Assembly (NCBI RefSeq): GCF_000346485.2
Contig: NZ_KQ976354.1
Location: forward strand, 10,560,341-10,624,340
From: Scytonema hofmannii PCC 7110
GTDB lineage: Bacteria > Cyanobacteriota > Cyanobacteriia > Cyanobacteriales > Nostocaceae
DNA length: 64,000 bases
Direction: 5' to 3'
Shown piece by piece: positions 6,069 to 23,136 of the stretch. A program made the translations under genes and the position numbers. Under the pieces are notes generated by a model. That model saw only the letters and a list, made by a program, of their open reading frames with translations. It searched no databases and was not told where the DNA came from. How positions within the stretch are numbered: the first letter of the stretch is position 1; every line of letters begins with the position of its first letter.

Positions 6069-6109
6069 CACGGTTATTTCCTTAAAATACCGATCTCTCA
6101 AGTCGGTTA

Positions 6110-6140
6110 GATACCCGACTTCTTAGAGAAGTCGGGTATC
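6110..6140. repeat. Hyphenated perfect palindrome (14-bp arms)
   Basis: The arms GATACCCGACTTCT and AGAAGTCGGGTATC flank a three-base loop. This belongs to the same family as the palindromes at 10008 and 47227. It lies just upstream of the PATAN gene and could fold in either transcript direction. Confidence 0.9.
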
Positions 6141-6595
6141 TTGTAACACCCTTTTCAATACCATAGTAGATTATGGGTGGAATATTGTGTGATCGCTGCC
6201 CCAATTCCTACCTTTTCTATCAGGTTTTATAGGTACTAAACTAACATTATTGATTCTAAAATTCCTGAGAGGAATCCTCTTCCATTTTTGACATATACGT
6301 AGGTAGGGCTATGCTGCACAAAAGCCTGATTTAGTGAGATTTAGCTCTACCTAATAATATATTTACAATCAAATGACTTATTAATAGATGCTTGATAAGC
6401 TTGCTCATCATGAATATATAATTACTATTTAAGCTTTTATTTATTCGATGTTACGCAGTGAAGTTAGTTAACATAATAGAAATATACTTTATATTTCTAT
6501 AAAGAAAAATAAAGAAAAAGTGAAATATTACCTATTGAGAATTTGGAGAGACTTGAAATTTCGCATCTCTAGATCGCCGATCCAGTAATACTAAA

Positions 6596-6684
6596 AACCC
6601 GGTTTCTTTATCGTTGATCCTACGAGATATCAAGCTTTCCAGGAGAGAGCAACCGGGTTTTTTGCCCCCTTTTTGACTACTGTA
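6596..6684. repeat. AACCCGG dispersed element, copy 1
   Basis: The element begins AACCCGGTTT and closes with an inverted AACCGGGTTTTTTGCC. Its internal core CCTACGAGATATCAAGCTT and its tail ending ACTACTGTA are almost identical to the copy at 32364-32451. Short inverted ends and conserved interior suggest a small mobile or structured element. Confidence 0.75.
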
Positions 6685-6693
6685 TCGGATAAA

Positions 6694-6724
6694 GAAACTC
6701 GGTATCTGGGAGATACCGAGTTTC
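6694..6724. repeat. Palindrome GAAACTCGGTATCT / AGATACCGAGTTTC
   Basis: Two 14-base arms separated by GGG form a perfect hairpin ten bases after the AACCCGG element. Its function is unknown. Confidence 0.85.
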
Positions 6725-7054
6725 TAAGGTTCAGTTTTTAAGTATATAATTTTACCGGTACGAGAATACGTATGTAATCATGTAACTTAAATAAAACTTA
6801 TATGTAAGTGATTACTTCAATTAATTTTACTTTAGGTTAAGTATTTTAACTTTCAATTGCGTAATGAATACATACTGAGGTATTTGACAGAAATTAATTG
6901 AATAGCAAGCGTCTGCAATTGCTATAAATCGCATAGCAGTTGTCTCAACAGGGGTATCTATAATTTTTGCGCCTGCTATCAATGCTTCACATATAGAATG
7001 ATTATCGCTAAAAAATCAATTAACAATTTTTTTAATAGATTTTCCGAGGATTCA

Positions 7055-9028: not shown

Positions 9029-9137
9029 AAATGTTAGTGGTTAGTAGATAGTAGATAGTGGTTAGTGGTTAGTGGTTAGTGGTTAGTGGTTAGTAGTATC
9101 AACAACTAACCACTAACAACTAACAACCAACAACTAA
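9029..9137. repeat. GGTTAGT short tandem repeats, inverted arrangement
   Basis: Tandem GGTTAGT units on the plus strand are followed by ACTAACCACTAAC units in the opposite sense. They form a long hairpin between two convergent genes and could serve as a bidirectional terminator. Confidence 0.8.
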
Positions 9138-9740
9138 CTACTTAATATTAATATTTATCGTAATTGCCGTACCTTGAAATTTTCCACTGGTTAGGGAATG
9201 GTAAGACACAAATCCACGATGTGGTTGGTCAAAAAGATAACCACGAGATAAAGGTGGAACCTTACCTTGTTTAACTAAAGAAATAAAAGTTCCTAGATAG
9301 TTGCGTATACTTTTGCGATTTCCCTCAGTTGTACTTATATGTTTCTCAATTAACATCATAAATAAGTCCAAGCTTCGGTTTTCTTGACCGTCTGCCCAAT
9401 TGCCATTCTCTAAAAAAGAAGCTGCTATGAGTTTTTCACCTGTTTGTTGTACTTTAAACAGGGTATAGTAACGCCATTCTTTTTTTGAATCGCTAATATA
9501 ACAAACCCAAGAACCCTCCGAGTCTTGTACAAAACCTTGTTGTGCAAGATACGCAAATGGCGAACTACTTTGCTGACTTGCTATGGGGGGTAATAAATTT
9601 TCTACCGTATTAAAAGAACAAAGTTTTTGTGTTATTTTTTGTTGCAGAGGAATTGGAATTTCTTGCGCTATAGCCACAAAAGATAGAAATGCAAACGCCT
9701 GAATAGCGGATGCACTAAACAAATGAATAATGGTATGCAT
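9138..9740 (-). CDS. Secreted protein of unknown function
   Basis: I do not recognise this 200-residue protein. It starts with a short hydrophobic leader (residues 7-25, ending near FVAIAQ) that looks like a signal peptide, so it is probably periplasmic. Visible features are two cysteines (in KLCSFNT and SWVCYIS), an aromatic segment EWRYYTLFKVQQTGEKLIA, and a C-terminal strand-rich tail (GKFQGTAITININIK). It stands alone, convergent with the hybrid kinase and followed upstream by a long gene-poor stretch. The composition and codon use look like genuine coding sequence. Confidence 0.65.
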   Translation of the reverse strand: MHTIIHLFSASAIQAFAFLSFVAIAQEIPIPLQQKITQKLCSFNTVENLLPPIASQQSSSPFAYLAQQGFVQDSEGSWVCYISDSKKEWRYYTLFKVQQTGEKLIAASFLENGNWADGQENRSLDLFMMLIEKHISTTEGNRKSIRNYLGTFISLVKQGKVPPLSRGYLFDQPHRGFVSYHSLTSGKFQGTAITININIK

Positions 9741-10007
9741 ATTTTTTTTACTTATTAAGTTAAAAATGAGACCCTTTTTTTCATGTAAAGTAAAAAGTGT
9801 CTCTCTTCCATTTTTTTATTCGATAAGTTCTTTAGCACTCCGGAGGATATTTCTTTTTTTCTCTCTCTAAAAGCTATTTGTTTAAAACAGTATAAATTGA
9901 CATGATTTGAATTTAATTTTCTTGTTTAAAAATTTTTAAGATTTTATGAAGAGTATTTCTAGCTACTATTTTTGAGGATTTTTTTCATATAGGGTTGGCA
10001 ATGCTCT

Positions 10008-10040
10008 AGATCCCCGACTTCTCAAAGAAGTCGGGGATCT
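10008..10040. repeat. Hyphenated perfect palindrome (15-bp arms)
   Basis: AGATCCCCGACTTCT and AGAAGTCGGGGATCT flank a CAA loop, a close relative of the palindromes at 6110 and 47227. Confidence 0.9.
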
Positions 10041-10478
10041 AACTTGCTATATTAGTGTATTGAGTGGTGTGTCAGGCATTTCCCGTAAAGGATAAAGCTG
10101 TTGGCGTAACGGAGAATCTTCTGTCAGTGGTACTGAAATGACTTCAGACTCCTTCCCTAAAAGAACACTTTAGGCGCAGTATATATCTATACTGCTATTG
10201 GCAACAACACGCTTGGCAATTCTTTTAAATGAGAGCAGCGCTTCAACAGGAGAAACAATTGTAAAGAAATATGAATAATGCCTTCTGCCTTCTGCCCTAT
10301 GCCCTGGGCGCTTCAACATAGCTGCCTCCTGTCTTCTACCTCCTTCGTTACATTCACCTAACTTATATAAATTCTTTGTTAAATTCATTTACAGACATAG
10401 CTCTCGGTGTGTCACACTTACAAACTAGAACTGGTTAAAGATTTGGAGTAAAAAGTCCGCAACTCCTGACTTTTGCTT

Positions 10479-10672
10479 TTAAGTTACCCTGTAGGGGTGT
10501 AACGAATGATATGATGTGACGTTAGTATCAATCAAATCCATCACTACTAACTGCACTACATTCTGGCTCGTCTGACTTGTTTGTCATTACGAAATCTGGT
10601 ATCCTCTCGAAGGGAATTAAGCAGATCCGTCAAATCTTCTGGTGTGGCAAATCTTACCGCAACAGAAATCTT
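10479..10672 (-). pseudogene. Possible remnant of a vapBC-type toxin-antitoxin pair
   Basis: On the reverse strand, an open stretch with no start codon reads SVAVRFATPEDLTDLLNSLR and ends RRARM* at 10556. Fifteen bases later an ATG at 10541 opens MDLIDTNVTSYHS, which resembles the N-terminus of PIN-domain VapC toxins (hydrophobic strand, then Asp-Thr-Asn). That frame stops after 20 codons. The layout, antitoxin tail followed closely by a PIN start, fits a decayed toxin-antitoxin operon. The evidence is only a short motif, so this is tentative. Confidence 0.25.
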
Positions 10673-11688
10673 AATTTAACCAGGGAAAGTAGTGATTGGT
10701 TTGATGGATGTAACGGATAAGTCCGTCCTCTACAGATACAAATAGATTATGGAGGTATCTGTACGGATCGATCGTGTTCTACCAGTCAGGGATTTACTCG
10801 TTAGGCTGCAAACCTCCTTGCAACTTATCATATTGGCTGTTCTGGGTTAACAAAACCTAACCAGTCTCAGTATTGCTTTGACTATGTTTGAGAAAATGTT
10901 TATGTTCCTACCTTTAGGGTGCTCGCCAGCCCCAGAGTTACCGAAACTAGGTAGGTTGAGCATAAGTAGAGGCGCAAATTATTGCGTCTGTTTAAGCGTG
11001 CATCTCGAAACAGTAATTGACCCAGACATTAATGAAACTCTTATGACTGGGTTGATTGGAAGAGGCTTCACACCGCGCACCGAAGAGAACACCGGACGCG
11101 CAACGAGTTTGCCTCTTCCTTGAAAGTTCTGCAAGAGCGTGTCTCTTCAGAGCAAAGATTTGCGGTGAAATGACAACCAAAATTTTTTTGGCAATATTTT
11201 TTGTGTTGCCTTGATATTTTGCACAACCATAACTTACGTGACCTCAAAAATAAAGTCTGAAGTATGAAGTATGAAGTCAACCCTATGAATGAATTCGGGA
11301 GGAGGCGCTTTGCACGGAGAAGTTGGCTGAAAGGTTTTCCTCGCTCCCAACTTCGCCCCATGTCCTTTGGATATCCTACGCGCTTAGCTCCTTTGCAGGA
11401 GATAATAAAAGTTTCCACGGTAGTGCGTTGCTGTCGTCGAGAATGTTGTCGCAACTGCCTCCCTATTGCAACGACTGCCATGGGTTTAAAACTTAGATTG
11501 TATATTCTGCGTGCTACCAGAATAAGTTCGGGTACTTGTGCTGGCTTTAGCACTTTTTTATGCTCAATCCTTCATTTTTTAGACTTTATTTTTTATATCG
11601 GGAAAGCACTACATCATAAAGTAACTTGTCACTCTACCAAGTGGTTTGTCACTGTACACCTGTGAATTGTCCATAAACCCGTATTTGG
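10673..11688. other. Gene-poor region, no supported gene
   Basis: Open frames of 133 codons (plus strand, 11264-11665) and 161 codons (minus strand, 11068-11553) overlap one another. They are rich in Arg, Cys and Ser, lack recognisable domains and have poor start contexts. The part around 11280-11400 contains an inverted AGAAGTTGG ... CCCAACTTCG repeat. I regard the stretch as spacer with decayed sequence plus the promoter of the REC-AraC gene. Confidence 0.5.
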
Positions 11689-12657
11689 ATGGCAAAGGAA
11701 ACGGTGAAAAAGATTCTAGTGATTGAAAATAAAGCAGAAACCCGAAAACTTTTTCTTTCATGCCTAAAAGCTGAAGGTTTCCATGCGATCAGTGCTGAAA
11801 ACGGTGCGATCGCAGTTCAACGAGCACAACAAGAGTTACCCGATCTAATCATCAGCGAAGTTTTGTTGCCAAAACTCGATGGTTTTAAAGTTCTAACAGC
11901 ATTGCGCCAAAATCCAGCCACAGCAATTATTCCTTTTATTTTTGTTACAGCTAAAGTCAGTCGCACTGATATTCGCAAAGGCATGGAATTGGGAGCAGAT
12001 GATTACATCACAAAACCTTGTACATTAGATGAATTACTCAAAGCGATCGCAGCTCGCTTGCAGAGACAAGCCATTCTTCAAACGTTGTATGGAGCAGCAC
12101 CCACATCAGTAACAGAAAATCCTTCCGGAGATAGTTGCGGCGCGTCTAGGACGAACGCAGGGACTCCAAGGGGCAAAACCTCTACTGACACTTTTCTATA
12201 CTCTGGTTCTAAGAACCTGGAAGTAGCTTCTGCAAAGCGAAGCTTTTCACCCAATAGCATCATGAAATCGGACGAGCCTCAGTCAATTCTGCCCAACGAT
12301 CCGGAATTGAGAGAGGTCTTCCGCTTTATTGAAGCAAACTACAATCAACAGATAACTTTAAGTAACGTAGCTGAAGCTGTGGGTTATTCTCCAGCTTATC
12401 TCACTAATCTTGTGAGACGGCAAACAGGACAAACTGTACAAGGTTGGATTATCGAGCGTCGAATGGCAGCTGCACGTTCCTTACTGTTAGAAACTAATCA
12501 CAGAGTAGAAGAAATCGCTGCCCAAGTTGGGTATTTTCACACAGTTCATTTCTTTCGCCAGTTTCGCCAGTATCATGGAACAACTCCCCAAGCCTGGAGA
12601 AGAACACAGCTTGCTCAGTACAAAGCCCAATACAAGCAAGAGCAACAAAATGGTTAG
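11689..12657 (+). CDS. REC-AraC response regulator with Glu in place of the phospho-Asp
   Basis: This 322-residue protein has an N-terminal receiver domain (about 8-125), a linker rich in Ser/Thr/Gly, and a C-terminal AraC-type double helix-turn-helix (about 205-310). The AraC part contains QITLSNVAEAVGYSPAYLTN and VEEIAAQVGYFHTVHFFRQF, both standard. The receiver keeps the Thr/Lys switch residues (IFVTAKV, DDYITKP). The phospho-acceptor position reads ISEVLLPKLDG, so Asp is replaced by Glu57, and the acidic pair at the start reads IENK rather than EDD. It may therefore act constitutively or through another input. It lies upstream of, and on the same strand as, the biosynthetic cluster, and could be its regulator; that link is inferred. 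Confidence 0.9.
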   Translation: MAKETVKKILVIENKAETRKLFLSCLKAEGFHAISAENGAIAVQRAQQELPDLIISEVLLPKLDGFKVLTALRQNPATAIIPFIFVTAKVSRTDIRKGMELGADDYITKPCTLDELLKAIAARLQRQAILQTLYGAAPTSVTENPSGDSCGASRTNAGTPRGKTSTDTFLYSGSKNLEVASAKRSFSPNSIMKSDEPQSILPNDPELREVFRFIEANYNQQITLSNVAEAVGYSPAYLTNLVRRQTGQTVQGWIIERRMAAARSLLLETNHRVEEIAAQVGYFHTVHFFRQFRQYHGTTPQAWRRTQLAQYKAQYKQEQQNG

Positions 12658-13388
12658 CTCTTCCATGAAATACACTTACGGGACTTACGCAAACTCAATC
12701 TATTTTCCGGAATTCTAGACATTGGAGATCCCCCAACCCCCCTTAAAAAGGGGGGCTATGCGTCAGTCCTAACTTAATTGTAGGGACGCGGTGGTATTGC
12801 ACCGCTACTGAAAGATTTACATAGAAATAAACTTAAACCTGAAGCTAAAAATTACAATATTATTCTAATCTTTAAATAATTTTTTATAAAAATATTTTAT
12901 GATCCATATTTTTTTCCAGATGTTGCCAATTTTAAGCACTTTAATTACATATAAGAATCTCTGGAATTTTTGATATATATATGATCGTCTTTAGCTCTAC
13001 CTAAAATTTTTTTCCTTCGGCATCTGCCTTGTTTCTTGAGAGCGTCCGACAGGCGGAGCACCACCCGCAATGAATGAAAGAAACTTTCTTTCCCCTACTC
13101 CCCACTCCCTACTCCCCACTCCCCCAAAAGTGTTTCTTGAGAGACATTAATGAACAATACTAAACATATATATGCTTTCCGGAACAATCGCACTTTTGAT
13201 TTATTATGTTTTAAATTAAACATTAGCGAAAGAATTGTTACTTTTCAAAAGATAGACTGTTGGCAAGCGCTTTTGAACTACAGTAAGCTTTAAGAGACAA
13301 AGAAAAAGGGTGAAGATACAAAGACAACTGGTAACAACTGAATCACCGAACACCATAAACTGCTGTTATTTTAGGAGGATTCTCATAT
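12658..13388. other. Intergenic region upstream of the biosynthetic cluster
   Basis: No gene is seen. At about 12725-12756 a CCCCCAACCCCCCTTAAAAA segment followed by GGGGGGCT forms a strong hairpin, a common cyanobacterial dispersed repeat that could end transcription of the regulator. Around 13095-13125 there are CTCCCCACTCC repeats. The last 150 bases before 13389 are AT-rich and end in an AGGAGG ribosome-binding site. Confidence 0.55.
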
Positions 13389-14435
13389 ATGATTGTCGTC
13401 ATGAAATCTGGTAGCCCATCAGAAGAAATTGAACGAATCATTCAAGAAATCCGCAATTGGAATATCACTCCAGAAAAATCAATAGGTCAGCACAAAGTGG
13501 TGATTGGTTTAATAGGTGAAACAGCGGAGATTGACCCGAGACAAATTCAAAATTTGAGCCACTGCATTGAGCAGGTTGTCCGGGTGAAAAAGCCTTTCAA
13601 ACGAGCTTCTCTAGAATTTCACTCTCACCAACCAACAGATGTGGTTGTACCCACCCCAAATGGATCTGTAACTTTTGGGAAAAACCATCCTTTGGTGGTT
13701 GTAGCTGGACCCTGTTCTGTAGAAAATGAGGAGATGATTGTAGAAACAGCTCGGAGAGTGAAAGCTGCTGGAGCCAAATTTCTTCGAGGAGGAGCATACA
13801 AACCCCGTACATCCCCTTATGCGTTCCAAGGTCATGGAGAGAGTGCTTTATCACTCCTCGATAAAGCAAGAGAAGTCACTGGGTTGGGAATTATCACAGA
13901 AGTGATGGATACAACTGATATAGAGAAAGTTGCATTTGTCGCAGATGTGTTGCAGGTTGGTGCTCGCAATATGCAAAATTTCTCACTTCTTAAGAAGGTA
14001 GGTGCAACTGGAAAGCCGATTCTCTTAAAGCGCGGATTGTCAGCCACGATTGAAGAATGGTTGATGTCAGCCGAGTACATTTTGGCTGCTGGTAATCCCA
14101 ATGTCATTCTGTGCGAACGCGGCATCCGCAGTTTCGATCGCCAATACACTCGCAATATTTTTGATATATCTGCAATTCCCGTTTTGCGATCGCTCACTCA
14201 CCTACCCATTATGGTCGATCCCAGCCATGCCACTGGTAAATCAGAGTTGGTGCCAACAATGGCAAAAGCATCTGTAGCAGCTGGTGTTGATTCCTTAATG
14301 ATTGAAGTTCATCCTAACCCAAGCAAAGCCCTTTCTGATGGTCCTCAATCTCTCACATGGGAAGGATTTGAGGAATTAATGCGGGATTTGCCTAATATGG
14401 CTAATGCTTTTGAAAGTATGAAGGCTAAAGGATAA
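13389..14435 (+). CDS. aroF: 3-deoxy-7-phosphoheptulonate (DAHP) synthase, AroF type I-beta
   Basis: This 348-residue enzyme joins phosphoenolpyruvate and erythrose 4-phosphate in the first step of the shikimate pathway. An N-terminal ferredoxin-like regulatory domain (about 1-85, starting MIVVMKSGSPSEEIERII) precedes the TIM barrel. Barrel signatures are visible: VVAGPCSVENEEM, FLRGGAYKPRTSPYAFQG, LLKRGLSATIEEW, VDPSHATGKSELV, and DSLMIEVHPNP with the metal-binding His and Glu. A perfect AGGAGG ribosome-binding site precedes the start. It opens a same-strand series of tailoring genes, so it is likely a pathway-dedicated copy that boosts aromatic precursor supply, as in many aromatic natural-product clusters. 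That role is inferred from position. Confidence 0.95.
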   Translation: MIVVMKSGSPSEEIERIIQEIRNWNITPEKSIGQHKVVIGLIGETAEIDPRQIQNLSHCIEQVVRVKKPFKRASLEFHSHQPTDVVVPTPNGSVTFGKNHPLVVVAGPCSVENEEMIVETARRVKAAGAKFLRGGAYKPRTSPYAFQGHGESALSLLDKAREVTGLGIITEVMDTTDIEKVAFVADVLQVGARNMQNFSLLKKVGATGKPILLKRGLSATIEEWLMSAEYILAAGNPNVILCERGIRSFDRQYTRNIFDISAIPVLRSLTHLPIMVDPSHATGKSELVPTMAKASVAAGVDSLMIEVHPNPSKALSDGPQSLTWEGFEELMRDLPNMANAFESMKAKG

Positions 14436-14612
14436 AGGATCGTTAATTCTTTCATCCGACCTACGGAACACTTCATCCTTAAAATAAAACTTCTCCATTC
14501 AGGAAGGTCTTAGCAGCCTTGGAGAAAAGCAAGTTAAGCCTTACTTAACGGAGAAGTTAACTGAATTCGTTGTTCTCAGAACTCTACAACCAAAAAGGAA
14601 AAGAATCCTGTT

Positions 14613-16091
14613 ATGTCCAATATACCAAATTCCACTCAAATTTTAGTCATCGGTGGCGGGCCAGCTGGATCTACTGCTGCGACTTTGTTAGCGCGTGAAG
14701 GTTTTGACGTGACTTTGTTGGAACGAGATATTTTTCCGCGATATCACATTGGTGAGTCACTTTTGCCATCAGCTTTAGAAATATTTGACTTGCTTGGCGT
14801 GCGGGAAAAAGTTGAAGCACAAGGATTTCAACGCAAGCCCGGAGCTTATTTGGAGTGGGGCAAAGAAAAGTGGAGCCTCAATTTTGGGGAACTTAGCGGC
14901 GACCACACTTACAGCTTTCAAGTTCGTCGTGCTGAGTTTGACCACTTGCTTTTAGAACATTCCAAAAGCCAAGGTGTGAAGGTTTTTGAAGGAACTGAAA
15001 TCCGTCAAGTGTCTTTTGATGGAAATCGCCCAAAAAGCGCCACTTGGTCTCAATCCAATGGTGCGACTGGAGACATATCTTTTGATTTTGTCATTGATGC
15101 TTCAGGTCGTGCTGGTGTTTTGTCAACACGCTATCTGAAAAATCGCCGGAACCACAATGTATTCCAAAATATAGCCATCTGGGGCTATTGGAAGAATGTT
15201 AAAAGATTACCTCAAGGTCAAGAAGGCGCGATCGCAGTCGGTTCTATCCCAGAAGGTTGGCTGTGGGGAATTCCATTGGATGAAGAGATTATGAGTGTCG
15301 GCGTGGTTATGCACAAAGACCTTTACAAAGAAAGACGCAATAAGAAGTTGGAGGATATTTATTCAGAAGCCATTCAAGAATGCTCTCTAATCTCTGATAT
15401 GATTGCGCCAGGTGAGTTAGTTTCAGAAGTCAAAGTCGAGCAAGACTATTCTTACACCTCTGACTACTTCTCTGGTCCAGGCTACTTTGTGTCAGGAGAT
15501 GCTGCTTGCTTCCTAGATCCGCTCTTATCAAGTGGAGTTCATCTTGCCACTTACAGCGCACTATTAGCAGCCGCAAGTATCGCAAGCATTAAGCGCGGCG
15601 AGATTGACGAAGAACAAGCCGCCACCTTCTACGACAAGAGCTATCGACAAGCATATTTGCGTTTTCTCGTGTTTGTCTCAGCTTTCTACGACCAGAACCG
15701 TGGTAAAGATTCTTATTTCTGGGAAGCACAAAAATTAAGCCGCCACGACTTCAGTGGTGCTGATTTGAATCTTGCTTTCTTGAACCTAGTTTCTGGAGTT
15801 GAAGACTTAGTAGATGCACAAGAAGGTGCTACTGAGTTTGCTGTCAGCGAGATGTCAAAGCGGATCAAAGAAAACCATGACCTTCGCCAAGACAAAGAAA
15901 CCTTGGCATCAAAGGACAAGTCTACTGATTCTGCAATCCAATCCACAAACAATTTCTTCAATGCAGTAGAAGGGTTCTTCTCCCTCTCCGCTGCAGGGGC
16001 TATTGACGGTGTATATGTCGTCACTAAGCCAAATCTAGGCTTAGCACAAGTCACCCCAACACGCGAACTTCAAACAGGGGTTAGGGGTTAG
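14613..16091 (+). CDS. FAD-dependent halogenase-like oxidoreductase
   Basis: The 492-residue protein has the Rossmann motif GGGPAGS at residues 14-20 and a PHBH/halogenase fold. Three halogenase landmarks are visible: Lys75 in QRKPGAYLEWG, at the position of the catalytic lysine that carries or positions hypohalous acid; the WxWxIP motif as WLWGIP (216-221); and the Fx.Px.Sx.G signature as FLDPLLSSG (300-308). This combination is known from single-component-like and variant-B phenolic halogenases (CndH, PltM, CmlS types). The C-terminal 130 residues are a helical extension. The gene lies 177 bases after DAHP synthase on the same strand, consistent with halogenation of an aromatic precursor. 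It would need reduced FAD from a partner reductase, which is not adjacent. A non-halogenating oxidoreductase role remains possible. Confidence 0.82.
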   Translation: MSNIPNSTQILVIGGGPAGSTAATLLAREGFDVTLLERDIFPRYHIGESLLPSALEIFDLLGVREKVEAQGFQRKPGAYLEWGKEKWSLNFGELSGDHTYSFQVRRAEFDHLLLEHSKSQGVKVFEGTEIRQVSFDGNRPKSATWSQSNGATGDISFDFVIDASGRAGVLSTRYLKNRRNHNVFQNIAIWGYWKNVKRLPQGQEGAIAVGSIPEGWLWGIPLDEEIMSVGVVMHKDLYKERRNKKLEDIYSEAIQECSLISDMIAPGELVSEVKVEQDYSYTSDYFSGPGYFVSGDAACFLDPLLSSGVHLATYSALLAAASIASIKRGEIDEEQAATFYDKSYRQAYLRFLVFVSAFYDQNRGKDSYFWEAQKLSRHDFSGADLNLAFLNLVSGVEDLVDAQEGATEFAVSEMSKRIKENHDLRQDKETLASKDKSTDSAIQSTNNFFNAVEGFFSLSAAGAIDGVYVVTKPNLGLAQVTPTRELQTGVRG

Positions 16092-16291
16092 GGGGAGTGA
16101 GTGAGGGAGTGAGAGAGTGAGGGAGTGAGGGAGTGAGGGAGTGAGAGAGTGAGGGAAAGAATAATTTCTCTTGCTCCATCCCTAATACTCAATGCCCCCT
16201 CTCCCATCCCCAATCCAAAATCCAAAATCCAAAATCCAAAATCCAAAATCCAAAATCCAAAATCCAAAATCCAAAATCCAAAATCCAAAAT
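16092..16291. repeat. GTGAGGGA octamers and CCAAAAT heptamers in a gene spacer
   Basis: GTGAGGGA and GTGAGAGA units run from about 16096 to 16155. From about 16212 to 16290 the sequence is a pure array of about eleven AATCCAA heptamers. The array ends directly at the AAGGAG ribosome-binding site of the methyltransferase gene, so it forms most of that gene's leader. Confidence 0.9.
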
Positions 16292-16306
16292 CTAAGGAGC
16301 CTTCTC

Positions 16307-17176
16307 ATGTCGGTTTTTGTATCTGAAAACCCCCAAAATGATGTAAAATCTGAGGAAATCGATGTTGCCGCGCAGATGCGTAAAGGGCATCCCCAAATTC
16401 CTGAAGGTGACGCTTACATCATTAGGCTGATCAAACAACATTCCCAAAGATTGGAACGACCAATTCGCGTATTTGACGTTGGTTGTGGAACTGGATATTT
16501 TGCTTCAAAGTTAGCAAAACGATTACCTGAAATAGAACTCATTGCAAATGAGGATGAACCAGAAATTGTCGCTAAATTAGAACGTCGTTTAGCAACGGAT
16601 GCTAATGCTAAAGTGTTCTCTGGTTCATTTGAGGAGTGGAATGAAACTGTAGATATAGTTCTCTCCTGGGGAGCACATCACCATCTACCGAAAAACTACT
16701 TGACTCATGCCAAGCACATATTACATCAAGATGGTGTTATCATTGTAGGTGATGAGTTTTGCCCCGAATATTGCGAAAATCATCATGCAAAACGCATAGC
16801 TAACGCTGAATTGATCTACATTGCTAACGGGTATATCTTAACCACTGCAGAAGAAGTAGAGAATTATCAGCAAACGGGTCACATTCCAGAAGCTGCGTTA
16901 GATCTTGAACGTCTTCGGCAGCACGCACTTTGGACATGGTACAGGTATGTTGTGGACTTCGCTATGGATCGCAACTGTGTTGGCGTTGCGATCGAAGAAC
17001 TGCGAGCAACTCACGACGACCTAATTACAGGGTTAGGTATCGAACATAAAATGTCTCCACTGATTGTGGAGCAAGAGTTTAGACTCAGTAACTTCCGACA
17101 AATCTCCAAGAAAGTTTTTGGTCCTTCCTATGCACCGGAATACCAAAGCTTCGTTATTTACGAATTGGGAATTTAA
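16307..17176 (+). CDS. Class I SAM-dependent methyltransferase
   Basis: The 289-residue protein has the SAM-binding core near residues 55-150. Motif I is VFDVGCGTGYFASKLAKRLP, followed by an acidic strand end (IANEDEPEIV), and motif IV/post-I region VLSWGAHHHLPKNYLTHAKH, then GVIIVGDEFCPEY. The C-terminal half (about 160-289) is helical and probably forms the substrate pocket. An AAGGAG ribosome-binding site precedes the ATG. In its setting, between a halogenase-like enzyme and a threonine aldolase, an O- or N-methylation step on a small molecule is the likely job; the acceptor cannot be read from the sequence. Confidence 0.88.
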   Translation: MSVFVSENPQNDVKSEEIDVAAQMRKGHPQIPEGDAYIIRLIKQHSQRLERPIRVFDVGCGTGYFASKLAKRLPEIELIANEDEPEIVAKLERRLATDANAKVFSGSFEEWNETVDIVLSWGAHHHLPKNYLTHAKHILHQDGVIIVGDEFCPEYCENHHAKRIANAELIYIANGYILTTAEEVENYQQTGHIPEAALDLERLRQHALWTWYRYVVDFAMDRNCVGVAIEELRATHDDLITGLGIEHKMSPLIVEQEFRLSNFRQISKKVFGPSYAPEYQSFVIYELGI

Positions 17177-17351
17177 ATCAAATGGTTAGTTGTTAGTTGT
17201 TAGTTGTTCGTAGGGGCGCAAGGCTTTGCATCCGTACAGAATTAGTAAAAAATGCAACTAATTACTAACTACGAATTACCAACATCCAACCCCCAACCTC
17301 CATCTCCCAACCACTAACCACTAACCACTAACCACTAACCCTTTCCAAATT
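17177..17351. repeat. GTTAGTTGTTAGT array with inverted partner
   Basis: GTTAGTTGTTAGT units near 17185 are opposed by CCACTAACCACTAACC units near 17310-17342, giving a long potential hairpin between the methyltransferase and aldolase genes. A GGGGCGCAAGGC half-palindrome lies between. Confidence 0.8.
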
Positions 17352-18377
17352 ATGATTGACCTCCGCAGTGATACAGTAACGCAGCCAACACCTGCCATGC
17401 GTCAGGTTATGGCTTCTGCTAAAGTTGGTGATGATGTGTATGGTGAAGATCCCTCTGTCCGTCATCTAGAGGAGTATGCAGCCCATCTCACGGGTAAAGA
17501 AACTGCATTGTTTGTTCCTACAGGCACAATGGCAAACCAAATCGCACTAGGTGCGCTCACCAAACCGGGTGATGAAGTGATTATCGGTACAGGTAGCCAT
17601 TGTTACCTTTATGAAGGAGGTGCAGGTGCTGCTCTCAATGGTTTGCAATTTCAAACGGTTGGCAACAATGGTCGATTTACCGCTCATGATGTGAGTGCTG
17701 CTTACAAACCAGACAACCATCACCAAAGCCCAACAACTGTTGTTGCTTTTGAAAATACGCACAACCGTGGTGGTGGTTGGGTTTGGGATATTGATGAGTT
17801 GCGATCGCCTGCATCTGTTGCTCGCGAATATGGGATGTCACTGCACTTAGACGGTGCTCGTATTTTTAACGCTGAGGTTGCTAGTGGCGTGACTGTAAAA
17901 ACTTGGTCAGAGCCATTTGATACCGTCACTTTTTGCTTGTCTAAAGGCTTGGGAGCACCTGCAGGAAGTGTTGTTTGCGGTTCAAAAGCTCACATTCATC
18001 GCGCCCATCGCCTGCGGAAAATGTTTGGCGGTGCGATGAGGCAGGTAGGAATTCTGGCGGCGGCTGGTATGTATGCGCTACAGCATCATGTAGAACGATT
18101 GGCAGATGACCACGCCAACGCTCAGTTATTGGCTCAGATGTTAGCAAAGACGCCAGGTATTGTTCTCGATCCTGCAACAGTTGAAACAAACATCATTTGG
18201 TTTCAATTAGCACCCAATGTTCCTGATGCTCCAACTTTGGTTGCTGCTGCACGCGATCGCGGCGTGTTTCTAAGTTCTTCGGGGAAACGAGCCGTCAGAG
18301 CCGTAACCCATTTTGATATTACCCGAGATGACTGCGTAATAGCAGCTGGAATAGTGGGTGAAATTCTTGCACAGTAA
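17352..18377 (+). CDS. ltaE: Low-specificity L-threonine aldolase
   Basis: The 341-residue PLP enzyme cleaves or forms beta-hydroxy amino acids from glycine and an aldehyde. The N-terminus MIDLRSDTVTQPTPAMRQVM is the family hallmark. Further landmarks are VGDDVYGEDPSV, FVPTGTMANQIAL, HLDGARIFNAEV, and the PLP lysine in CLSKGLGAPAGSVVCGS. Length fits the family. Its place inside the tailoring-gene series, rather than near glycine metabolism, suggests it makes or breaks an aryl beta-hydroxy amino acid in the pathway. That is an inference; an ordinary threonine-degrading role is possible. Confidence 0.93.
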   Translation: MIDLRSDTVTQPTPAMRQVMASAKVGDDVYGEDPSVRHLEEYAAHLTGKETALFVPTGTMANQIALGALTKPGDEVIIGTGSHCYLYEGGAGAALNGLQFQTVGNNGRFTAHDVSAAYKPDNHHQSPTTVVAFENTHNRGGGWVWDIDELRSPASVAREYGMSLHLDGARIFNAEVASGVTVKTWSEPFDTVTFCLSKGLGAPAGSVVCGSKAHIHRAHRLRKMFGGAMRQVGILAAAGMYALQHHVERLADDHANAQLLAQMLAKTPGIVLDPATVETNIIWFQLAPNVPDAPTLVAAARDRGVFLSSSGKRAVRAVTHFDITRDDCVIAAGIVGEILAQ

Positions 18378-18506
18378 ACGTTAGTGGTTAGTTGTTATTA
18401 GTTAGTTGTTAGTCGTTAGTAAATTTTTTACTAATCATGTACGGGCGCAAGGCATTGCGCCCCTACTAACCATTAACCACTCACCACTAACAATTTCCTA
18501 AATTCT
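18378..18506. repeat. GTTAGT array and GGGCGCAAGGCATTGCGCCC palindrome
   Basis: GGTTAGTTGTTA units near 18385-18420 are opposed by ACCATTAACCACTCACC near 18466-18490. Between them is the palindrome GGGCGCAAGGCATTGCGCCC, also present near 49043. Together they make a large hairpin. Confidence 0.8.
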
Positions 18507-19829
18507 ATGTCTATGACATCAACTCCGAAATCCTCTTCATTAGATATACCAATGAGCGAACGTATTATTGTTGACATACAGCAAACGAGTTGTTGTATTG
18601 TTGGTGGCGGCCCTACAGGCGCTGTACTCGCACTTGCATTGGCGCGTCAAGGTGTTGCTGTAACATTGCTAGAGGCACATAAAACTTTTGACCGGGACTT
18701 CCGAGGCGACATTATGCATGCGGGAGCGATGGAAATCATGGATGAACTTGGTGTTGCTGAACGTTTGCTCCGGGAAATTCCTCACACAAAGACGGACAAA
18801 ATAGAATTCATGACACCCGAACAAAGTGTCACATTTGCAGACTTCAGCCGGTTGAAATCTCGACACCCTTATGCTACTATTATTCCTCAAGCAAAGTTTA
18901 TCGAATTCCTCACTACCGAAGCAAAACGCTACCCAAATTTTCAAATAATAATGGGTGCAAACGTACAGCAACTGATTGAGGAAGATGGAATTATCAGTGG
19001 TGTTCGATACCGAGGTAACGGTGGCTGGCATGAGGTGAGAGCCAAGCTGGTCGTTGGCGCAGATGGTCGCTTTTCTCGCATCCGTCAATTGGCAGGTATG
19101 CAACAGGATAAGACAACTGCTCCGATGGATTTGCTATGGTTGCGTCTTCCGCGACACTCTCACGAGCCACAAGGTCTGATTGCACGCTTTGGAGCCAAGC
19201 GCGTCATAGTTATGTACAATACCCATGACGATAATTGGCAATTTGCTTACCTCATTCGCAAAGGTTATTACAATCAACTCGTTGCGGCGGGTATAGAAGC
19301 ATTGCAAGAGTCCATCGTTGAAATCGTGCCAGAATTTAGCGATCGCGTGCATCATCTCAAAGATTGGAAGCAAGCGTCACTTCTCTCTGTTGACGTTGGT
19401 TGTCTCAAGCAGTGGTTCCGTCCTGGACTTCTTTTTATTGGTGATTCAGCCCATGTCATCTCACCTATCGGTGGAGTTGGCATCAACTATGCAATCCAGG
19501 ATGCAGCAACAGCAGCCAACATCCTTGGCGAACCACTCAGAAAAGGCGAGTTAAGACTGAGCCACCTCGCGCAAGTACAGCGCCGTCGCGAGTTGTCAGT
19601 GCGAACCCTCCAAGCTTTTCAGTCCTTTATTCAGACAAATATCACGGCCAAAGCCCTTCAATCAGACAATACATTAAAACTACCGTATTACCTGCATTTG
19701 CCAATTTTGCGCGATATCCCGGCTCAATTACTAGCTTTTGGTCTTTTTCCATCTCATTTAAAGATCAAATCCAGCTTGCAGGCAATGGTTGGAAATACGG
19801 CGAGTGGTTACTCTACCTTGCCAAATTAA
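18507..19829 (+). CDS. FAD-dependent aromatic monooxygenase (PHBH/UbiH fold)
   Basis: The 440-residue protein is a class A flavoprotein monooxygenase. It has the ADP-binding motif IVGGGPTGAVLALALARQG (about residues 35-53), the DG motif in KLVVGADGRFSRIRQLAG, and the GD motif in LLFIGDSAHVISPIGGVGIN, which contacts FAD and NAD(P)H. Such enzymes hydroxylate phenols, anthranilates or ubiquinone precursors. An ATG eight codons or more downstream of the first (MSERIIVD) is an alternative start. Its neighbours make hydroxylation of the shikimate-derived intermediate plausible. No halogenase motif WxWxIP is present, which separates it from the enzyme at 14613. Confidence 0.88.
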   Translation: MSMTSTPKSSSLDIPMSERIIVDIQQTSCCIVGGGPTGAVLALALARQGVAVTLLEAHKTFDRDFRGDIMHAGAMEIMDELGVAERLLREIPHTKTDKIEFMTPEQSVTFADFSRLKSRHPYATIIPQAKFIEFLTTEAKRYPNFQIIMGANVQQLIEEDGIISGVRYRGNGGWHEVRAKLVVGADGRFSRIRQLAGMQQDKTTAPMDLLWLRLPRHSHEPQGLIARFGAKRVIVMYNTHDDNWQFAYLIRKGYYNQLVAAGIEALQESIVEIVPEFSDRVHHLKDWKQASLLSVDVGCLKQWFRPGLLFIGDSAHVISPIGGVGINYAIQDAATAANILGEPLRKGELRLSHLAQVQRRRELSVRTLQAFQSFIQTNITAKALQSDNTLKLPYYLHLPILRDIPAQLLAFGLFPSHLKIKSSLQAMVGNTASGYSTLPN

Positions 19830-19974
19830 TAGCTTATATACCATTTTGGATTTTAGATTTTGGATTTTGGATTGAGGAAGCCTTACCTAGACTTAACTCT
19901 CGCCAAACTATCTGTCGCATTCTTTTTTCAAATTGGTATAGTTCAACTTTGTGACTTTTTTAAGGAGAATTATC

Positions 19975-21453
19975 ATGGCACACGATGGAACAACAACACT
20001 TCCAACTCAGTACAACACAAGCGCAGAAAATCTTACAGAAGAAGACACATTGGTAGCCAATTCTGAGATGCCAATGCAGTACAACACGAGCGCAGAAAAT
20101 CTCACAGTAGAAGACACATTGGTAGCTAATTCTGAGATGCCAATGCAGTACAACACGAGCGCAGAAAATCTCACAGCAGAAGACACATTGGTAGGAAATC
20201 CTGAAGAGCCAGTCGTACTACCCGATATAAATCGACCGGGTTACTGGTTAGTTGGCGATCACGCTACTTTTGTTGCAGATGGCGAAGATACCAACGGGCA
20301 ATACTCTCTGTTTGACTTCTACACTCTTCCCCAGGGCGGTCCTTTTCCCCACATCCACCGTACAGAAAATGAGTTTGCCTATATCCTAGATGGAGAAATT
20401 TCTTACCAACTGAATGACGAAGTTATCACTGCAACTCCTGGAACATTTGTCTACAAACACCAAGATGATATTCATGGATTTGTCAACTTAGGTGACACAC
20501 CATCACGGCATTTAGAGTTTACTTTACCACCAGGTTTGGAGAACGCATTTGCAACAGTTGGTGTACCCGGCTCAATTTTAGAACCACCTCCCAACGAAAT
20601 TCCCCCTAGCGAAATCTTAGATAACTACACAGAGGTTTTAGCTGAATATGGAGTAGAGGCTCAAAATTCAATCATCTTCCCTTCAGCCGGACTCAATGAG
20701 ACACTAACTGGTGTTCCTGAAGTGACATTACTTCGTCCCGGTCAAGCAGATACAGCAGTGAGTGCAACACTTGCTCTGAGTAACGGTACTGCAATTCCAG
20801 TTGATTTTGCCGCAGGGGAAAGAACAAAAACCGTAGAGATTCCCGTTGACGGTTCTGAAGTACCTGGACAAACTCTTGAATTAGCTATCACCAATCCCAC
20901 AGACGGTGCTATTGTTGGGCTATTACAAGACGAACTTGTTCTCACTTTTGGAGAAGACAATACCTACACTTTAGAAAACGGGGATAAACCCGACAGTTTT
21001 CCAACAATACTGCCAAACGACGAAGAACGTCTGAAAGTGTCCTTAGGTAACGACGAGTATACCTTTGTCGCAACTGCAGCAGATACAGATGGAAAAATTT
21101 CCCTGCTTGATGTTTCCGTTCGACCGGGAACTCAAAACGAATCCCTGCTTTCTGCACCTACAGATTTAGGATTTTATGTCGTAGATGGGAATGTGACATT
21201 TGAGCTTGGAGATGAATCATTTACAGCTGCTCAAGACACTTTTGTCTTTCTACCTGAAGGTAACTCCTTTGCATTAACAAATCAAGGAACGCTACCTGCA
21301 AGAACACTTGCATTCTCTACATCTCCAGAAATTGAGGAATATATTGCAAGCATGGGTATAGGTGATACCCAATCTAATTCTCCTCTCTCAATCATGGAAC
21401 CCCCGTTGACATCCGACCTCAGTACAATGATTTCAACAGAGTCCTTGGTTTAA
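19975..21453 (+). CDS. Bicupin protein with N-terminal 23-residue repeats and a Calx-beta-like middle
   Basis: The protein of about 492 residues starts with three 23-residue repeats (QYNTSAENLT-EDTLV-N-E). A first cupin follows (about 90-200) with PHIHRTENEFAYILDGEIS, which supplies His-His-Glu metal ligands, and HQDDIHGFVN for the last His. A middle part (about 235-325, VTLLRPGQADTAVSATLALS) looks like a Calx-beta domain. A second cupin-like domain (about 345-460) has lost the obvious His ligands. The start was set at 19975 because AAGGAG precedes it; the upstream ATG at 19951 has no such site. No signal peptide is seen. It could be a quercetinase-like dioxygenase or an isomerase in the pathway. 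Confidence 0.8.
   Translation: MAHDGTTTLPTQYNTSAENLTEEDTLVANSEMPMQYNTSAENLTVEDTLVANSEMPMQYNTSAENLTAEDTLVGNPEEPVVLPDINRPGYWLVGDHATFVADGEDTNGQYSLFDFYTLPQGGPFPHIHRTENEFAYILDGEISYQLNDEVITATPGTFVYKHQDDIHGFVNLGDTPSRHLEFTLPPGLENAFATVGVPGSILEPPPNEIPPSEILDNYTEVLAEYGVEAQNSIIFPSAGLNETLTGVPEVTLLRPGQADTAVSATLALSNGTAIPVDFAAGERTKTVEIPVDGSEVPGQTLELAITNPTDGAIVGLLQDELVLTFGEDNTYTLENGDKPDSFPTILPNDEERLKVSLGNDEYTFVATAADTDGKISLLDVSVRPGTQNESLLSAPTDLGFYVVDGNVTFELGDESFTAAQDTFVFLPEGNSFALTNQGTLPARTLAFSTSPEIEEYIASMGIGDTQSNSPLSIMEPPLTSDLSTMISTESLV
20008..20214 (+). repeat. Three in-frame 69-bp tandem repeats in the bicupin gene
   Basis: Units begin at 20008, 20077 and 20146, each starting CAGTACAACAC. The exact 69-base period keeps the reading frame, and the units differ at only a few positions, so the duplication is recent or is kept uniform by recombination. 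Confidence 0.95.
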
Positions 21454-21474
21454 GTTCGCGATAATTCCGGGACG

Positions 21475-21957
21475 ATGCTTACCGGATACAAATTAGCTTT
21501 CAGACCACAAGGTAGTTTTTCCAAATCGATTGTACGGAAAATGCTCAAGTATATTCCACTCATTGCACGCTCTTCACTATCCTCCGTTTTTCTTGAATCT
21601 GGCGTCAACAAGATTTTGCATCCCGTTGCAACACAACAATTTATGGCTGCTCATGGGATGCCTTTCACAGGTCTATTTTTAGTCAGTGCTATTGTCCTTG
21701 AACTAGTTGCTGGGCTAGCAGTATTACTGGGTTACAAAGCTCGTTGGGCTGCGATCGCACTCATCAAGTTTTTGATTACTGTCACATTTATTTTCCACAC
21801 AAATTTTTCCGATCCTATGCAGATAGGTCAGTTCATGAAGAATTTGGCTATTTTAGGTGGATTGATGATGGTAGTTCAATATGGACCGGGAGCAGTGAGT
21901 TTTGACCACCGAACCACTATAGTGAATTTGAAGAAGGGAGTAGGGAGTAGGGAATAG
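21475..21957 (+). CDS. DoxX family membrane protein
   Basis: The 160-residue protein has four hydrophobic segments and the DoxX signature LARSSLSSVFLESGVNKI-like start (here PLIARSSLSSVFLESGVNKI), then GLFLVSAIVLELVAGLAVLL and FHTNFSDPMQIGQFMKNLAI. DoxX proteins are small inner-membrane proteins linked to quinone or thiosulfate oxidation and redox stress; their exact reaction is often unknown. A start at 21541 (MLKYIPL) would fit family length better, but neither start has a strong ribosome-binding site. The gene follows the bicupin gene by 21 bases and is probably cotranscribed. Confidence 0.88.
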   Translation: MLTGYKLAFRPQGSFSKSIVRKMLKYIPLIARSSLSSVFLESGVNKILHPVATQQFMAAHGMPFTGLFLVSAIVLELVAGLAVLLGYKARWAAIALIKFLITVTFIFHTNFSDPMQIGQFMKNLAILGGLMMVVQYGPGAVSFDHRTTIVNLKKGVGSRE

Positions 21958-22091
21958 GGAGTAGGGAGTAGGGAGTGGGGAGTGGGGAGTGGGGAGTGGG
22001 GAGTGGGGAGTAAGAAGTAATAGATAGTTGGTTGAAATTAAGTCCCAGTCAGGCTTTTTCAATCCAAAATCTAAAATCTAAAATCCAAAAT
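21930..22091. repeat. GGGAGTA/GGGAGTG heptamers and CCAAAAT heptamers
   Basis: GAGTAGGGAGTAGGG and GTGGGGAGTGGGG units run from about 21935 to 22015, covering the end of the DoxX gene. A short AATCTAAAATCCAAAAT block at 22062-22091 lies just ahead of the dehydrogenase ribosome-binding site. Confidence 0.85.
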
Positions 22092-22116
22092 GGTATTAGA
22101 TTGAAGGAACGCAATT

Positions 22117-23136
22117 ATGGGTTTAATGAAAGCAGTTCAGGTCAGCAGACCTGGTGGAGATTTTGAAGTTGTCGAACGGGAAATTCCCGAACCCCAACAC
22201 AATCAAGTCCGCGTCAAAATAGAAGCCTGTGGTATCTGCCATGGTGATGTGTTTGTCAAAGAAGGTTTTTGGCACGGGCTAAAATATCCCCGCATACCAG
22301 GTCATGAGATTGTTGGGTCTATTGATAAAGTCGGAGAAGGCGTCACCACTTGGCAGCAAGGGCAACGTGTAGGTGTTGGCTGGCATGGTGGGCATTGTTT
22401 CCAGTGTGAACCTTGTCTTCAAGGCGACTTTAGCAATTGCCAAAATTCTGCAATCACAGGAATAGATTTTGATGGCGGTTATGCAGAATATACAGTTGTA
22501 CCAAGCTCAGCACTCGCTAGCATTCCAGAAGACTTTAGTTCCATTGAAGCAGCACCTTTATTATGTGCTGGAATTACAACCTTTAATGCCTTACGCAATT
22601 CTGGAGCAAGAGTAGGTGATATTGTTGCCGTACAAGGAGTCGGCGGATTGGGACATTTAGCCATTCAGTTTGCCCGTAAAATGGGTTTTAAAACGGTGGC
22701 AGTATCACGCGGACAAGATAAGAAAAAACTTGCCCTCGAAATGGGTGCTTCTGAATATGTTGACACTGAATTAGTTGATGCTGCACAAGCACTCATTGAT
22801 ATGGGGGGAGCAAAGGTTATCCTAGCCACAGCACCAAATAGCAAAGCAATGTCTTCTTTAGTTAATGGGTTAGCTGTTAATGGCAAGTTGTTAATTGTAG
22901 GGGCATCAGGAGAACCATTAGAAATATCTCCAATACAGTTAATTAAAGGCAGAAAATCCGTTCAAGGATGGCATAGCGGACACGCTAAAGATTCAGAAGA
23001 AACCTTAAGCTTTTGCATGATAAGTGAAATCCGTCCCTTAATTGAAGTATTTTCATTAGAAAATGTGGCAGAAGCTTACAAACGAATGCTCTACAACAAA
23101 GCTCGTTTTCGAGTAGTTTTGCAAATTTCCCCATAG
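22117..23136 (+). CDS. Zinc-dependent alcohol dehydrogenase
   Basis: The 339-residue medium-chain dehydrogenase has the catalytic zinc ligands in ACGICHGDVFV and PGHEIVG, the structural zinc cysteines in CFQCEPCLQGDFSNC, and the NAD(P)-binding loop VQGVGGLGHLAIQFARKMGF. It belongs to the AdhP/cinnamyl-alcohol-like class that interconverts primary alcohols and aldehydes. A GAAGGAA ribosome-binding site precedes the start. In context it could supply or remove the aldehyde used by the threonine aldolase; this is inference. It closes the series of enzyme genes before the copper-related genes. Confidence 0.93.
   Translation: MGLMKAVQVSRPGGDFEVVEREIPEPQHNQVRVKIEACGICHGDVFVKEGFWHGLKYPRIPGHEIVGSIDKVGEGVTTWQQGQRVGVGWHGGHCFQCEPCLQGDFSNCQNSAITGIDFDGGYAEYTVVPSSALASIPEDFSSIEAAPLLCAGITTFNALRNSGARVGDIVAVQGVGGLGHLAIQFARKMGFKTVAVSRGQDKKKLALEMGASEYVDTELVDAAQALIDMGGAKVILATAPNSKAMSSLVNGLAVNGKLLIVGASGEPLEISPIQLIKGRKSVQGWHSGHAKDSEETLSFCMISEIRPLIEVFSLENVAEAYKRMLYNKARFRVVLQISP

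What the first reader, a model, noticed from the sequence alone, without database searches (positions are those of the whole stretch)
13389..23136. Candidate new biosynthetic cluster for a halogenated, methylated aromatic product
DAHP synthase, a halogenase-like flavoenzyme, a methyltransferase, threonine aldolase, an FAD monooxygenase, a bicupin protein, DoxX and a zinc dehydrogenase lie on one strand. Motifs support each family. The set has no PKS or NRPS core, so standard cluster finders could miss it. I know of no described cyanobacterial pathway with this exact set; whether it is new is inference.
Basis: partly seen in the sequence, partly recalled or inferred. Interest (0 to 1): 0.82.

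Follow-up and report, generated by a model that had tools for sequence, protein, structure and literature searches.

The report
Cyanobacterial genes for a halogenated phenol
A block of cyanobacterial genes that is kept together in relatives looks like an undescribed pathway that puts a halogen on a small phenol without the usual large assembly-line enzymes; its product is not known.

Summary
They behave as a unit. Same-genus genome G018 keeps DAHPS, halogenase (HAL), methyltransferase (MT), aldolase (TA), monooxygenase (FMO), bicupin and DoxX in order, with the upstream AraC-type response regulator. Nostoc sp. XA010 has HAL-MT-TA-FMO on one contig and bicupin...dehydrogenase on another, probably split only by an IS element. 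A contig of the window's own genome holds decayed DAHPS, FMO and bicupin pieces in the same order. MT was found in 3 of 192 family genomes, all three with the block. HAL has both flavin-halogenase motifs and the Lys and Asp essential in the phenol halogenase RadH. DAHPS is an accessory paralog. The block is mosaic: window and G018 share about 90% DNA identity up to 18.4 kb, then 63-75% through FMO. The regulator belongs; DAHPS, DoxX and dehydrogenase are not in every copy. Best reading: an uncharacterised PKS/NRPS-free pathway to a halogenated, probably methylated aromatic, of the kind of the cyanobacterin cluster but with another gene set, which six literature searches did not find. Product and all reactions are inferred.

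The parts
11689..12657 (+). Response regulator with AraC-type DNA-binding domain, likely regulator of the block
   Evidence: Response_reg + HTH_18; 89% in G018 in the same place; a 57% relative stands directly upstream of an 81% DAHPS in G007 (L154)
13389..14435 (+). DAHP synthase, accessory paralog
   Evidence: PRK13396 647 bits, cut-off 486; 1 of 5 full copies in the genome; accessory clade of 11 of 35 rows, support 99/98; absent from the 703 bp upstream of HAL in XA010
14613..16091 (+). Flavin-dependent halogenase, RadH/CndH/CmlS type
   Evidence: Trp_halogenase 140 bits; WLWGIP at 216, FLDPLLSSG at 300; K75 and D302 align with RadH K74 and D325 and are invariant in 13 homologs
16307..17176 (+). 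Class I SAM methyltransferase, acceptor unknown
   Evidence: Methyltransf_25; 3 of 192 family genomes, 1 of 386 phylum genomes, the own one; weak match to the O-methyltransferase CysG, E 6e-5
17352..18377 (+). PLP aldolase of the GntG / L-allo-threonine aldolase type
   Evidence: GntG subfamily 420 bits, cut-off 230; nearest solved chains are L-allo-threonine aldolases
18507..19829 (+). FAD monooxygenase (PRK06185-like), cluster-type clade
   Evidence: FAD_binding_3 177 bits; PRK06185.1-3 451 bits, below its cut-off of 500; in a clade of 6 rows (98/100) apart from the common cyanobacterial copy
19951..21453 (+). Bicupin; first cupin keeps conserved His/Glu residues, second does not show them
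   Evidence: Cupin_2, two stretches; H134, H136, E141, H175 invariant in three sequences; 64% in G018, 54.5% in XA010, 72.5% piece on own contig C2
21475..21957 (+). DoxX-type membrane protein, variable member
   Evidence: DoxX; 74% in G018; not found in the XA010 contig pieces examined
22117..23136 (+). Zinc alcohol/aldehyde dehydrogenase, variable member
   Evidence: ADH_N + ADH_zinc_N; Ahr model 258 bits, below its cut-off of 470; 79.5% homolog three genes after the bicupin in XA010; not found in the 19 kb of G018 examined

Best explanation
The block 11.7-23.1 kb is a small specialised-metabolite gene cluster. An accessory DAHP synthase pushes carbon into the shikimate pathway. A RadH-type flavin halogenase puts Cl or Br on a small phenol, next to its hydroxyl. 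The FAD monooxygenase oxidises the ring, and the methyltransferase caps the product or an intermediate. The GntG-type aldolase cleaves (or, less likely, forms) a beta-hydroxy-alpha-amino acid, giving glycine and an aromatic aldehyde, which the dehydrogenase can reduce where it is present. The bicupin does a metal-dependent oxidation. The upstream AraC-type response regulator controls the unit. Shown by sequence: the genes, their families, intact catalytic motifs of HAL, co-inheritance, accessory status of DAHPS, an exchanged back half. Inferred: every reaction, their order and the product. If the methylated group is the phenol that guides the halogenase, halogenation comes first, because RadH does not accept O-methylated phenols. 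The confidence is for 'dedicated pathway to a halogenated small aromatic'; for this exact set of reactions I would say 0.25.
For: Order kept in G018 (L025) and, for HAL-MT-TA-FMO, in XA010 (L015). XA010 contig ends lie in the two ends of one IS5-type element with TTA on both sides and one open frame of 569 codons over the joined flanks, and the second contig carries bicupin and the 79.5% dehydrogenase. Decayed copy on own contig C2 with DAHPS, FMO and bicupin pieces in order. MT in 3 of 192 genomes, all with HAL. HAL: motifs, K75/D302 aligned with RadH K74/D325, essential in RadH (passages of PMC5637929), invariant in 13. HAL relatives next to phenol-type genes: 3,4-AHBA synthesis (L029), cyanobacterin-like (L030, L031), ketosynthase-like/O-methyltransferase loci (L021). 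DAHPS in the accessory clade, 99/98. TA in the subfamily of GntG, reported as a retro-aldol enzyme (passage of PMC10367076).
Against: No product, transcript or enzyme datum. XA010 has no DAHPS in the 703 bp upstream of HAL, the decayed copy shows no HAL, MT or TA, and G007 has regulator + DAHPS while no HAL match at E<=1e-100 was found in its genome: the members do not always travel together. FMO and bicupin of G018 are only 64-66% identical while the genes before are 93-95%, so part of the block may be foreign. The two nearest HAL homologs outside the block (77%) sit beside NRPS genes, so a carrier-bound substrate is possible, though no carrier protein was found here. No flavin reductase lies in the block (nearest: 2807-3448, minus strand). 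No gene was assigned that would make the beta-hydroxy group for TA. The MT acceptor is unknown. In XA010 the IS element interrupts the bicupin frame. The XA010 join could be false if that genome holds several copies of the element.
Confidence: 0.68

Rival explanations
1. The halogenase works in trans for a cyanobacterin-like cluster elsewhere in the same genome (C1 about 1.247-1.263 Mb: DAHPS, aromatic ammonia lyase, AMP ligase, ScyA-related TPP enzyme, ketosynthase III-like, two P450-like genes), and the rest of the window block is only partly its own pathway.
For: No HAL match lies near that cluster (all 7 own-genome matches at E<=0.001 listed), while the two similar clusters of G123 (ketosynthase 79% and 68%) have a HAL relative inside and the cyanobacterin cluster has its own flavin halogenase CybI (passages of PMC8777810, and PMC12481558).
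Against: HAL keeps MT, TA and FMO as neighbours in XA010 as well as in G018. The G123 enzymes are no closer to the window HAL (50-59% identity) than other branches. A second HAL paralog, 58%, exists in the own genome and could do the job as well.
Confidence: 0.12
2. Two independent units lie side by side: a front one (regulator, DAHPS, HAL, MT, TA) and a back one (FMO, bicupin, DoxX, dehydrogenase) with separate products.
For: A sharp drop of DNA identity to G018 at about 18.4 kb; FMO family common, 110 of 192 genomes; FMO-like and bicupin-like genes also adjoin in G077 (L157, weak, 25% and 40%).
Against: FMO follows HAL-MT-TA in all three copies, and the decayed copy joins DAHPS with FMO and bicupin pieces in order. 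The drop is better read as exchange of the back half inside one locus.
Confidence: 0.15
3. The halogenase-like enzyme is really a monooxygenase and the block is degradative or makes an unhalogenated aromatic.
For: The best NCBIfam model CmlS is far below its cut-off (307 against 900 bits) and the monooxygenase QhpG also scores 210 bits against a cut-off of 240; cupins, DoxX and dehydrogenases are also usual in degradation (general knowledge).
Against: WxWxIP and FxxPxxSxG are both intact, with the Lys and Asp essential in RadH; the nearest solved chains are halogenases. A dedicated DAHPS points to synthesis.
Confidence: 0.05

Closest known systems
Cyanobacterin (cyb) cluster of Tolypothrix sp. 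PCC 9009
   Same: Aromatic product made without a large PKS/NRPS; flavin halogenase (CybI, from passages of PMC8777810 and PMC12481558). The cyb-like clusters of G123 carry a HAL 50-59% identical to the window's, and the cyb-like cluster of the own genome has its own accessory DAHPS.
   Different: The window block has no ammonia lyase, AMP ligase, TPP enzyme or ketosynthase in the ORFs scanned, and instead has MT, GntG-type aldolase, FMO and bicupin. CybI itself was not compared; its sequence was not at hand.
RadH, fungal phenol halogenase (radicicol pathway)
   Same: HAL aligns over residues 3-387 with 276 bits; both essential residues K74 and D325 have counterparts.
   Different: RadH belongs to a fungal polyketide pathway (recalled); substrate of HAL untested.
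GntG of the guanitoxin pathway
   Same: Same aldolase subfamily, above cut-off; the nearest TA outside the block in 145 genomes, 48%, lies in a guanitoxin-like locus (L158).
   Different: No other guanitoxin-type gene was seen in the block; substrate must differ (inference). L-allo-threonine aldolases of primary metabolism are similarly close.
Ambigol cluster of Fischerella ambigua (recalled, not examined)
   Same: Recalled as a PKS/NRPS-free cyanobacterial pathway to polychlorinated phenols with halogenase and DAHP synthase.
   Different: Recalled as using P450 coupling; neither cluster nor paper was available here (one search lists only papers that mention ambigol).

Membership tests
Flavin-dependent halogenase | FAD-binding GxGxxG | tested here: met
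   GGGPAG at 14
Flavin-dependent halogenase | WxWxIP motif | tested here: met
   WLWGIP at 216; W216, W218, I220, P221 invariant in 13
Flavin-dependent halogenase | FxxPxxSxG motif (name recalled) | tested here: met
   FLDPLLSSG at 300; F300, P303, S306, G308 invariant in 13
RadH-like phenol halogenase | Essential Lys (RadH K74) and Asp (RadH D325) | tested here: met
   K75 and D302 at the aligned places, counted on the alignment; essential role from passages of PMC5637929
RadH-like phenol halogenase | RadH F328, conserved in fungal phenol halogenases | tested here: not met
   L305 at the aligned place
Flavin-dependent halogenase | Halogenation activity with FADH2 | not testable with these tools
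   No assay; no flavin reductase in the block
Cyanobacterin-type (cyb) cluster | CybC ligase, CybE TPP enzyme, CybF ketosynthase-like protein | tested here: not met
   None in the 30 window ORFs scanned
Cyanobacterin-type (cyb) cluster | Flavin halogenase of the CybI type | tested here: inconclusive
   50-59% identity to HALs inside cyb-like clusters of G123; CybI not at hand; inner HAL branches unresolved
Accessory (pathway-dedicated) DAHP synthase | Extra copy, outside the clade of the common copies | tested here: met
   5 full copies; 11-row clade 99/98 against a 24-row clade 99/98
GntG / L-allo-threonine aldolase | Curated subfamily score | tested here: met
   420 bits, cut-off 230
GntG / L-allo-threonine aldolase | Retro-aldol activity on a beta-hydroxy amino acid | not testable with these tools
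   SKGL stretch at 197 holds the expected PLP lysine (recalled motif)
CysG-type metal-dependent O-methyltransferase | His-His-Asp metal motif | tested here: inconclusive
   His-His of MT (HHH at 124) aligns with His-His of CysG; the Asp lies outside the aligned part (motif from passages of PMC11408123)

The most novel reading that the evidence does not exclude
A new class of small halogenated aromatic metabolites: halogenation of a free beta-hydroxy aromatic amino acid (or its precursor) is coupled to GntG-type retro-aldol cleavage, and a conserved front cassette (HAL, MT, TA, often with regulator and DAHPS) is fitted with interchangeable back cassettes (FMO, bicupin, then hydrolase, acyltransferase or dehydrogenase), so that each strain makes a different end product.
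Probability: 0.22. Interest if true: 0.68.

Novelty: new variant of a known kind. Interest (0 to 1): 0.52.

Why it matters
It is a concrete, testable orphan pathway without a PKS or NRPS core, with a halogenase that probably acts on free phenols. Conserved front half and exchanged back half make product diversification directly testable. The rare methyltransferase (3 of 192 family genomes) is a clean probe for finding more producers.

Tried and rejected
Methyltransferase fold: the AlphaFold model from three sequences has mean pLDDT 63 and 794 chains match it at E<=0.001, so it does not tell the acceptor. N-methylation by analogy with Asc-Orf2 was dropped: the better match, CysG, is an O-methyltransferase (passages), and even that match is weak.

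FMO as a marker of the pathway: rejected. 110 of 192 family genomes have it at E<=1e-90, at 52-61% identity outside the cluster-type clade. In 8 of the 10 neighbourhoods fetched it lies beside an ABC-transporter ATPase-like ORF, in 7 of 10 also near a single-strand-binding-protein-like ORF (read by eye). HAL matches in those loci are cross-matches of the FAD fold.

Sampling limits: the TA search (16 of 145) and the bicupin search (5 of 145) do not list XA010 (G172); it was searched apart for the bicupin only. The phylum search with MT found only the own genome among 386, and G018 and G172 evidently were not drawn. The 17 loci include one contig twice (L016 and L027).

Trees: 19-row HAL tree, 6 of 16 inner branches open; L018 (Nostoc sp. 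WHI) dropped out because its HAL frame is interrupted. FMO tree: support for window + XA010 is 94/88, below the starred level. DAHPS: which accessory copy is sister to the block copy is unresolved.

No information: promoter scan, 24 hits against 23.7 expected; Rfam, no match in the window. Literature: one search found 0 papers with all four terms; the listings and abstract starts show nothing on this gene set. The cyanobacterin biosynthesis paper itself is not held. That a 12.3 Mb Scytonema-like genome recalls Scytonema hofmannii PCC 7110 is a recollection, not a result.
Full report
What is there. The eight ORFs of the finding are real, on one strand, and belong to the named families. Gaps are 21-215 bp inside the block and 731 bp from the regulator to DAHPS. 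The window lies in a genome of 12.29 Mb in 39 contigs. Named records that hold HAL relatives at 77-86% are Nostoc sp. XA010 and an uncultured Scytonema, so it is a cyanobacterium of that group.

Is it a unit? Three lines say yes. (1) G018, same genus, keeps regulator, DAHPS, HAL, MT, TA, FMO, bicupin and DoxX in order. As a close relative with collinear flanks this alone proves little. (2) Nostoc sp. XA010 (L015; G172 contig C2 has the same length and match position) has HAL-MT-TA-FMO at 69-86% identity. That contig then runs into an insertion element. A second XA010 contig starts in the other end of the same element type and goes on with the bicupin (54.5%), a second dehydrogenase, a PapA-type acyltransferase and a 79.5% homolog of the window's dehydrogenase. 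Both contig ends hit NC_007410.1 on the same strand 0.7 kb apart (86859-86924 and 87591-87717), and some of the listed hits are annotated IS5 family transposase. Both flanks carry TTA, and the joined flanks give one open frame of 569 codons. If that genome holds several copies of the element, the join could still be false. (3) Contig C2 of the own genome (308 kb) holds, on one strand and in order, pieces of DAHPS (residues 1-70 and 237-267), FMO (243-310) and bicupin (58-212); four DNA pieces match at 73-81%. This is a decayed older copy. HAL, MT and TA gave no match there at E<=1e-3.

How rare? HAL at E<=1e-100: 6 of 192 family genomes. MT at E<=1e-40: 3 of 192, the three with the block, and at E<=1e-25 1 of 386 across the phylum, the own genome. 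TA at E<=1e-60: 16 of 145; apart from own and G018 none exceeds 48% identity. Bicupin at E<=1e-30: 5 of 145, near full length only in own and G018. FMO is common: 110 of 192. Of the 17 loci compared, MT and TA appear only in L015 and L025.

Genes. DAHPS: 5 full copies in the genome. The 35-row tree splits into an accessory clade (11 rows, 99/98) with this copy and a 24-row clade. Other accessory copies lie by trp-type genes (L108, by eye) or in the cyanobacterin-like cluster (L107). In G007 a relative of the regulator and of DAHPS stand together (57% and 81%) on a 3.2 kb contig, and no HAL was found in that genome at E<=1e-100. HAL: CndH, RadH, CmlS and another halogenase are the nearest solved chains; motifs and catalytic residues are intact, except that RadH F328 is Leu here. 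Relatives of HAL serve many pathways: NRPS genes (L016; L028 with P450 and TauD), 3,4-AHBA synthesis genes with an AvaA6-like ligase below its cut-off (L029), cyanobacterin-like clusters (L030, L031), and ketosynthase-like and methyltransferase-like ORFs in a Pseudonocardiales record, with an FMO 39% identical (L021). TA: L-allo-threonine aldolase type, subfamily of the retro-aldol enzyme GntG. Bicupin: the first cupin keeps H134, H136, E141 and H175 in three sequences; nearest solved relative is quercetin dioxygenase, weak (E 1e-7). MT: acceptor unknown.

Mosaic. Between window and G018 the aligned DNA is 86-91% identical from 9.3 to 17.2 kb and 86-96% per 100 bp over TA; it falls at 18.35-18.55 kb, is 63-75% per 100 bp over FMO and 71% over bicupin-DoxX, and returns to 87.5-90.5% from 23.24 kb on. 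G018 has an extra alpha/beta hydrolase, and no dehydrogenase homolog was found in its 19 kb. FMO of G018 falls outside the group of window and XA010 (moderate support). So the back half has probably been exchanged in one lineage.

Interpretation. The block is most likely a pathway without PKS/NRPS to a halogenated, probably methylated aromatic, with strain-specific late steps. The closest known kind is the cyanobacterin cluster. The own genome has a cluster of that kind at C1 1.247-1.263 Mb with no halogenase match near it (the P450 and TyrA-like ORFs there were named by eye). That leaves open that HAL serves it in trans. I judge this less likely because HAL keeps its own partners in XA010.

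Novelty. Nothing on this set appeared in the listings. The library is partial and no cluster database was at hand. I file it as a new variant of a known kind.

Noticed in passing
L106 (own genome C2:178000-196000), about 8661-9967, minus strand: Decayed second copy of the block: DAHPS, FMO and bicupin pieces in order, next to metal-related genes (ArsR-like and P-type ATPase, by eye and by match to the window's ATPase).
   Followed up: partly
L107 and L112 (own genome C1 about 1.247-1.263 Mb): Cyanobacterin-like cluster (DAHPS, aromatic lyase, ligase, ScyA-related TPP enzyme, ketosynthase III-like, Coq4-like, P450-like ORFs) without a halogenase match nearby.
   Followed up: partly
L029 (G123 contig C312), about 3213-11138, minus strand: Halogenase with 3-dehydroquinate synthase II and ADH-synthase genes (as for 3-amino-4-hydroxybenzoate), a cupin and a ligase closest to the diazotase AvaA6 (414 bits, cut-off 975): possible halogenated, perhaps diazo, AHBA pathway in a cyanobacterium.
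   Followed up: partly
L032 4221-12581 (own genome C1:11.16 Mb), also L017 and L018 (Nostoc): Second HAL paralog (58%) in a conserved set: glyoxalase-fold protein, 188 aa and 605 aa proteins without Pfam match, PfpI-like, SIS-like and (L032, L018) an O-methyltransferase; in L018 the HAL frame is interrupted.
   Followed up: partly
L075 (G073 contig C2), about 3900-17700, minus strand: Two tandem FMO genes of the cluster type next to polyketide-synthase-like and cyclase-like ORFs (by eye): an aromatic polyketide locus.
   Followed up: no
window 2807-3448, minus strand: Flavin-reductase-like gene beside amino-acid-type ABC transporter genes, 10 kb from the halogenase; could supply reduced flavin, but nothing links it to the block.
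   Followed up: no
L026 end and L156 end (Nostoc sp. XA010): An IS5-type element apparently splits the bicupin frame of the XA010 copy, so that copy may be impaired.
   Followed up: partly
L022, L023, L024 (Amycolatopsis), about 10001-12688: Two tandem halogenases, about 54% and 35% identical to the window enzyme, in three Amycolatopsis genomes; neighbourhood not worked out.
   Followed up: no
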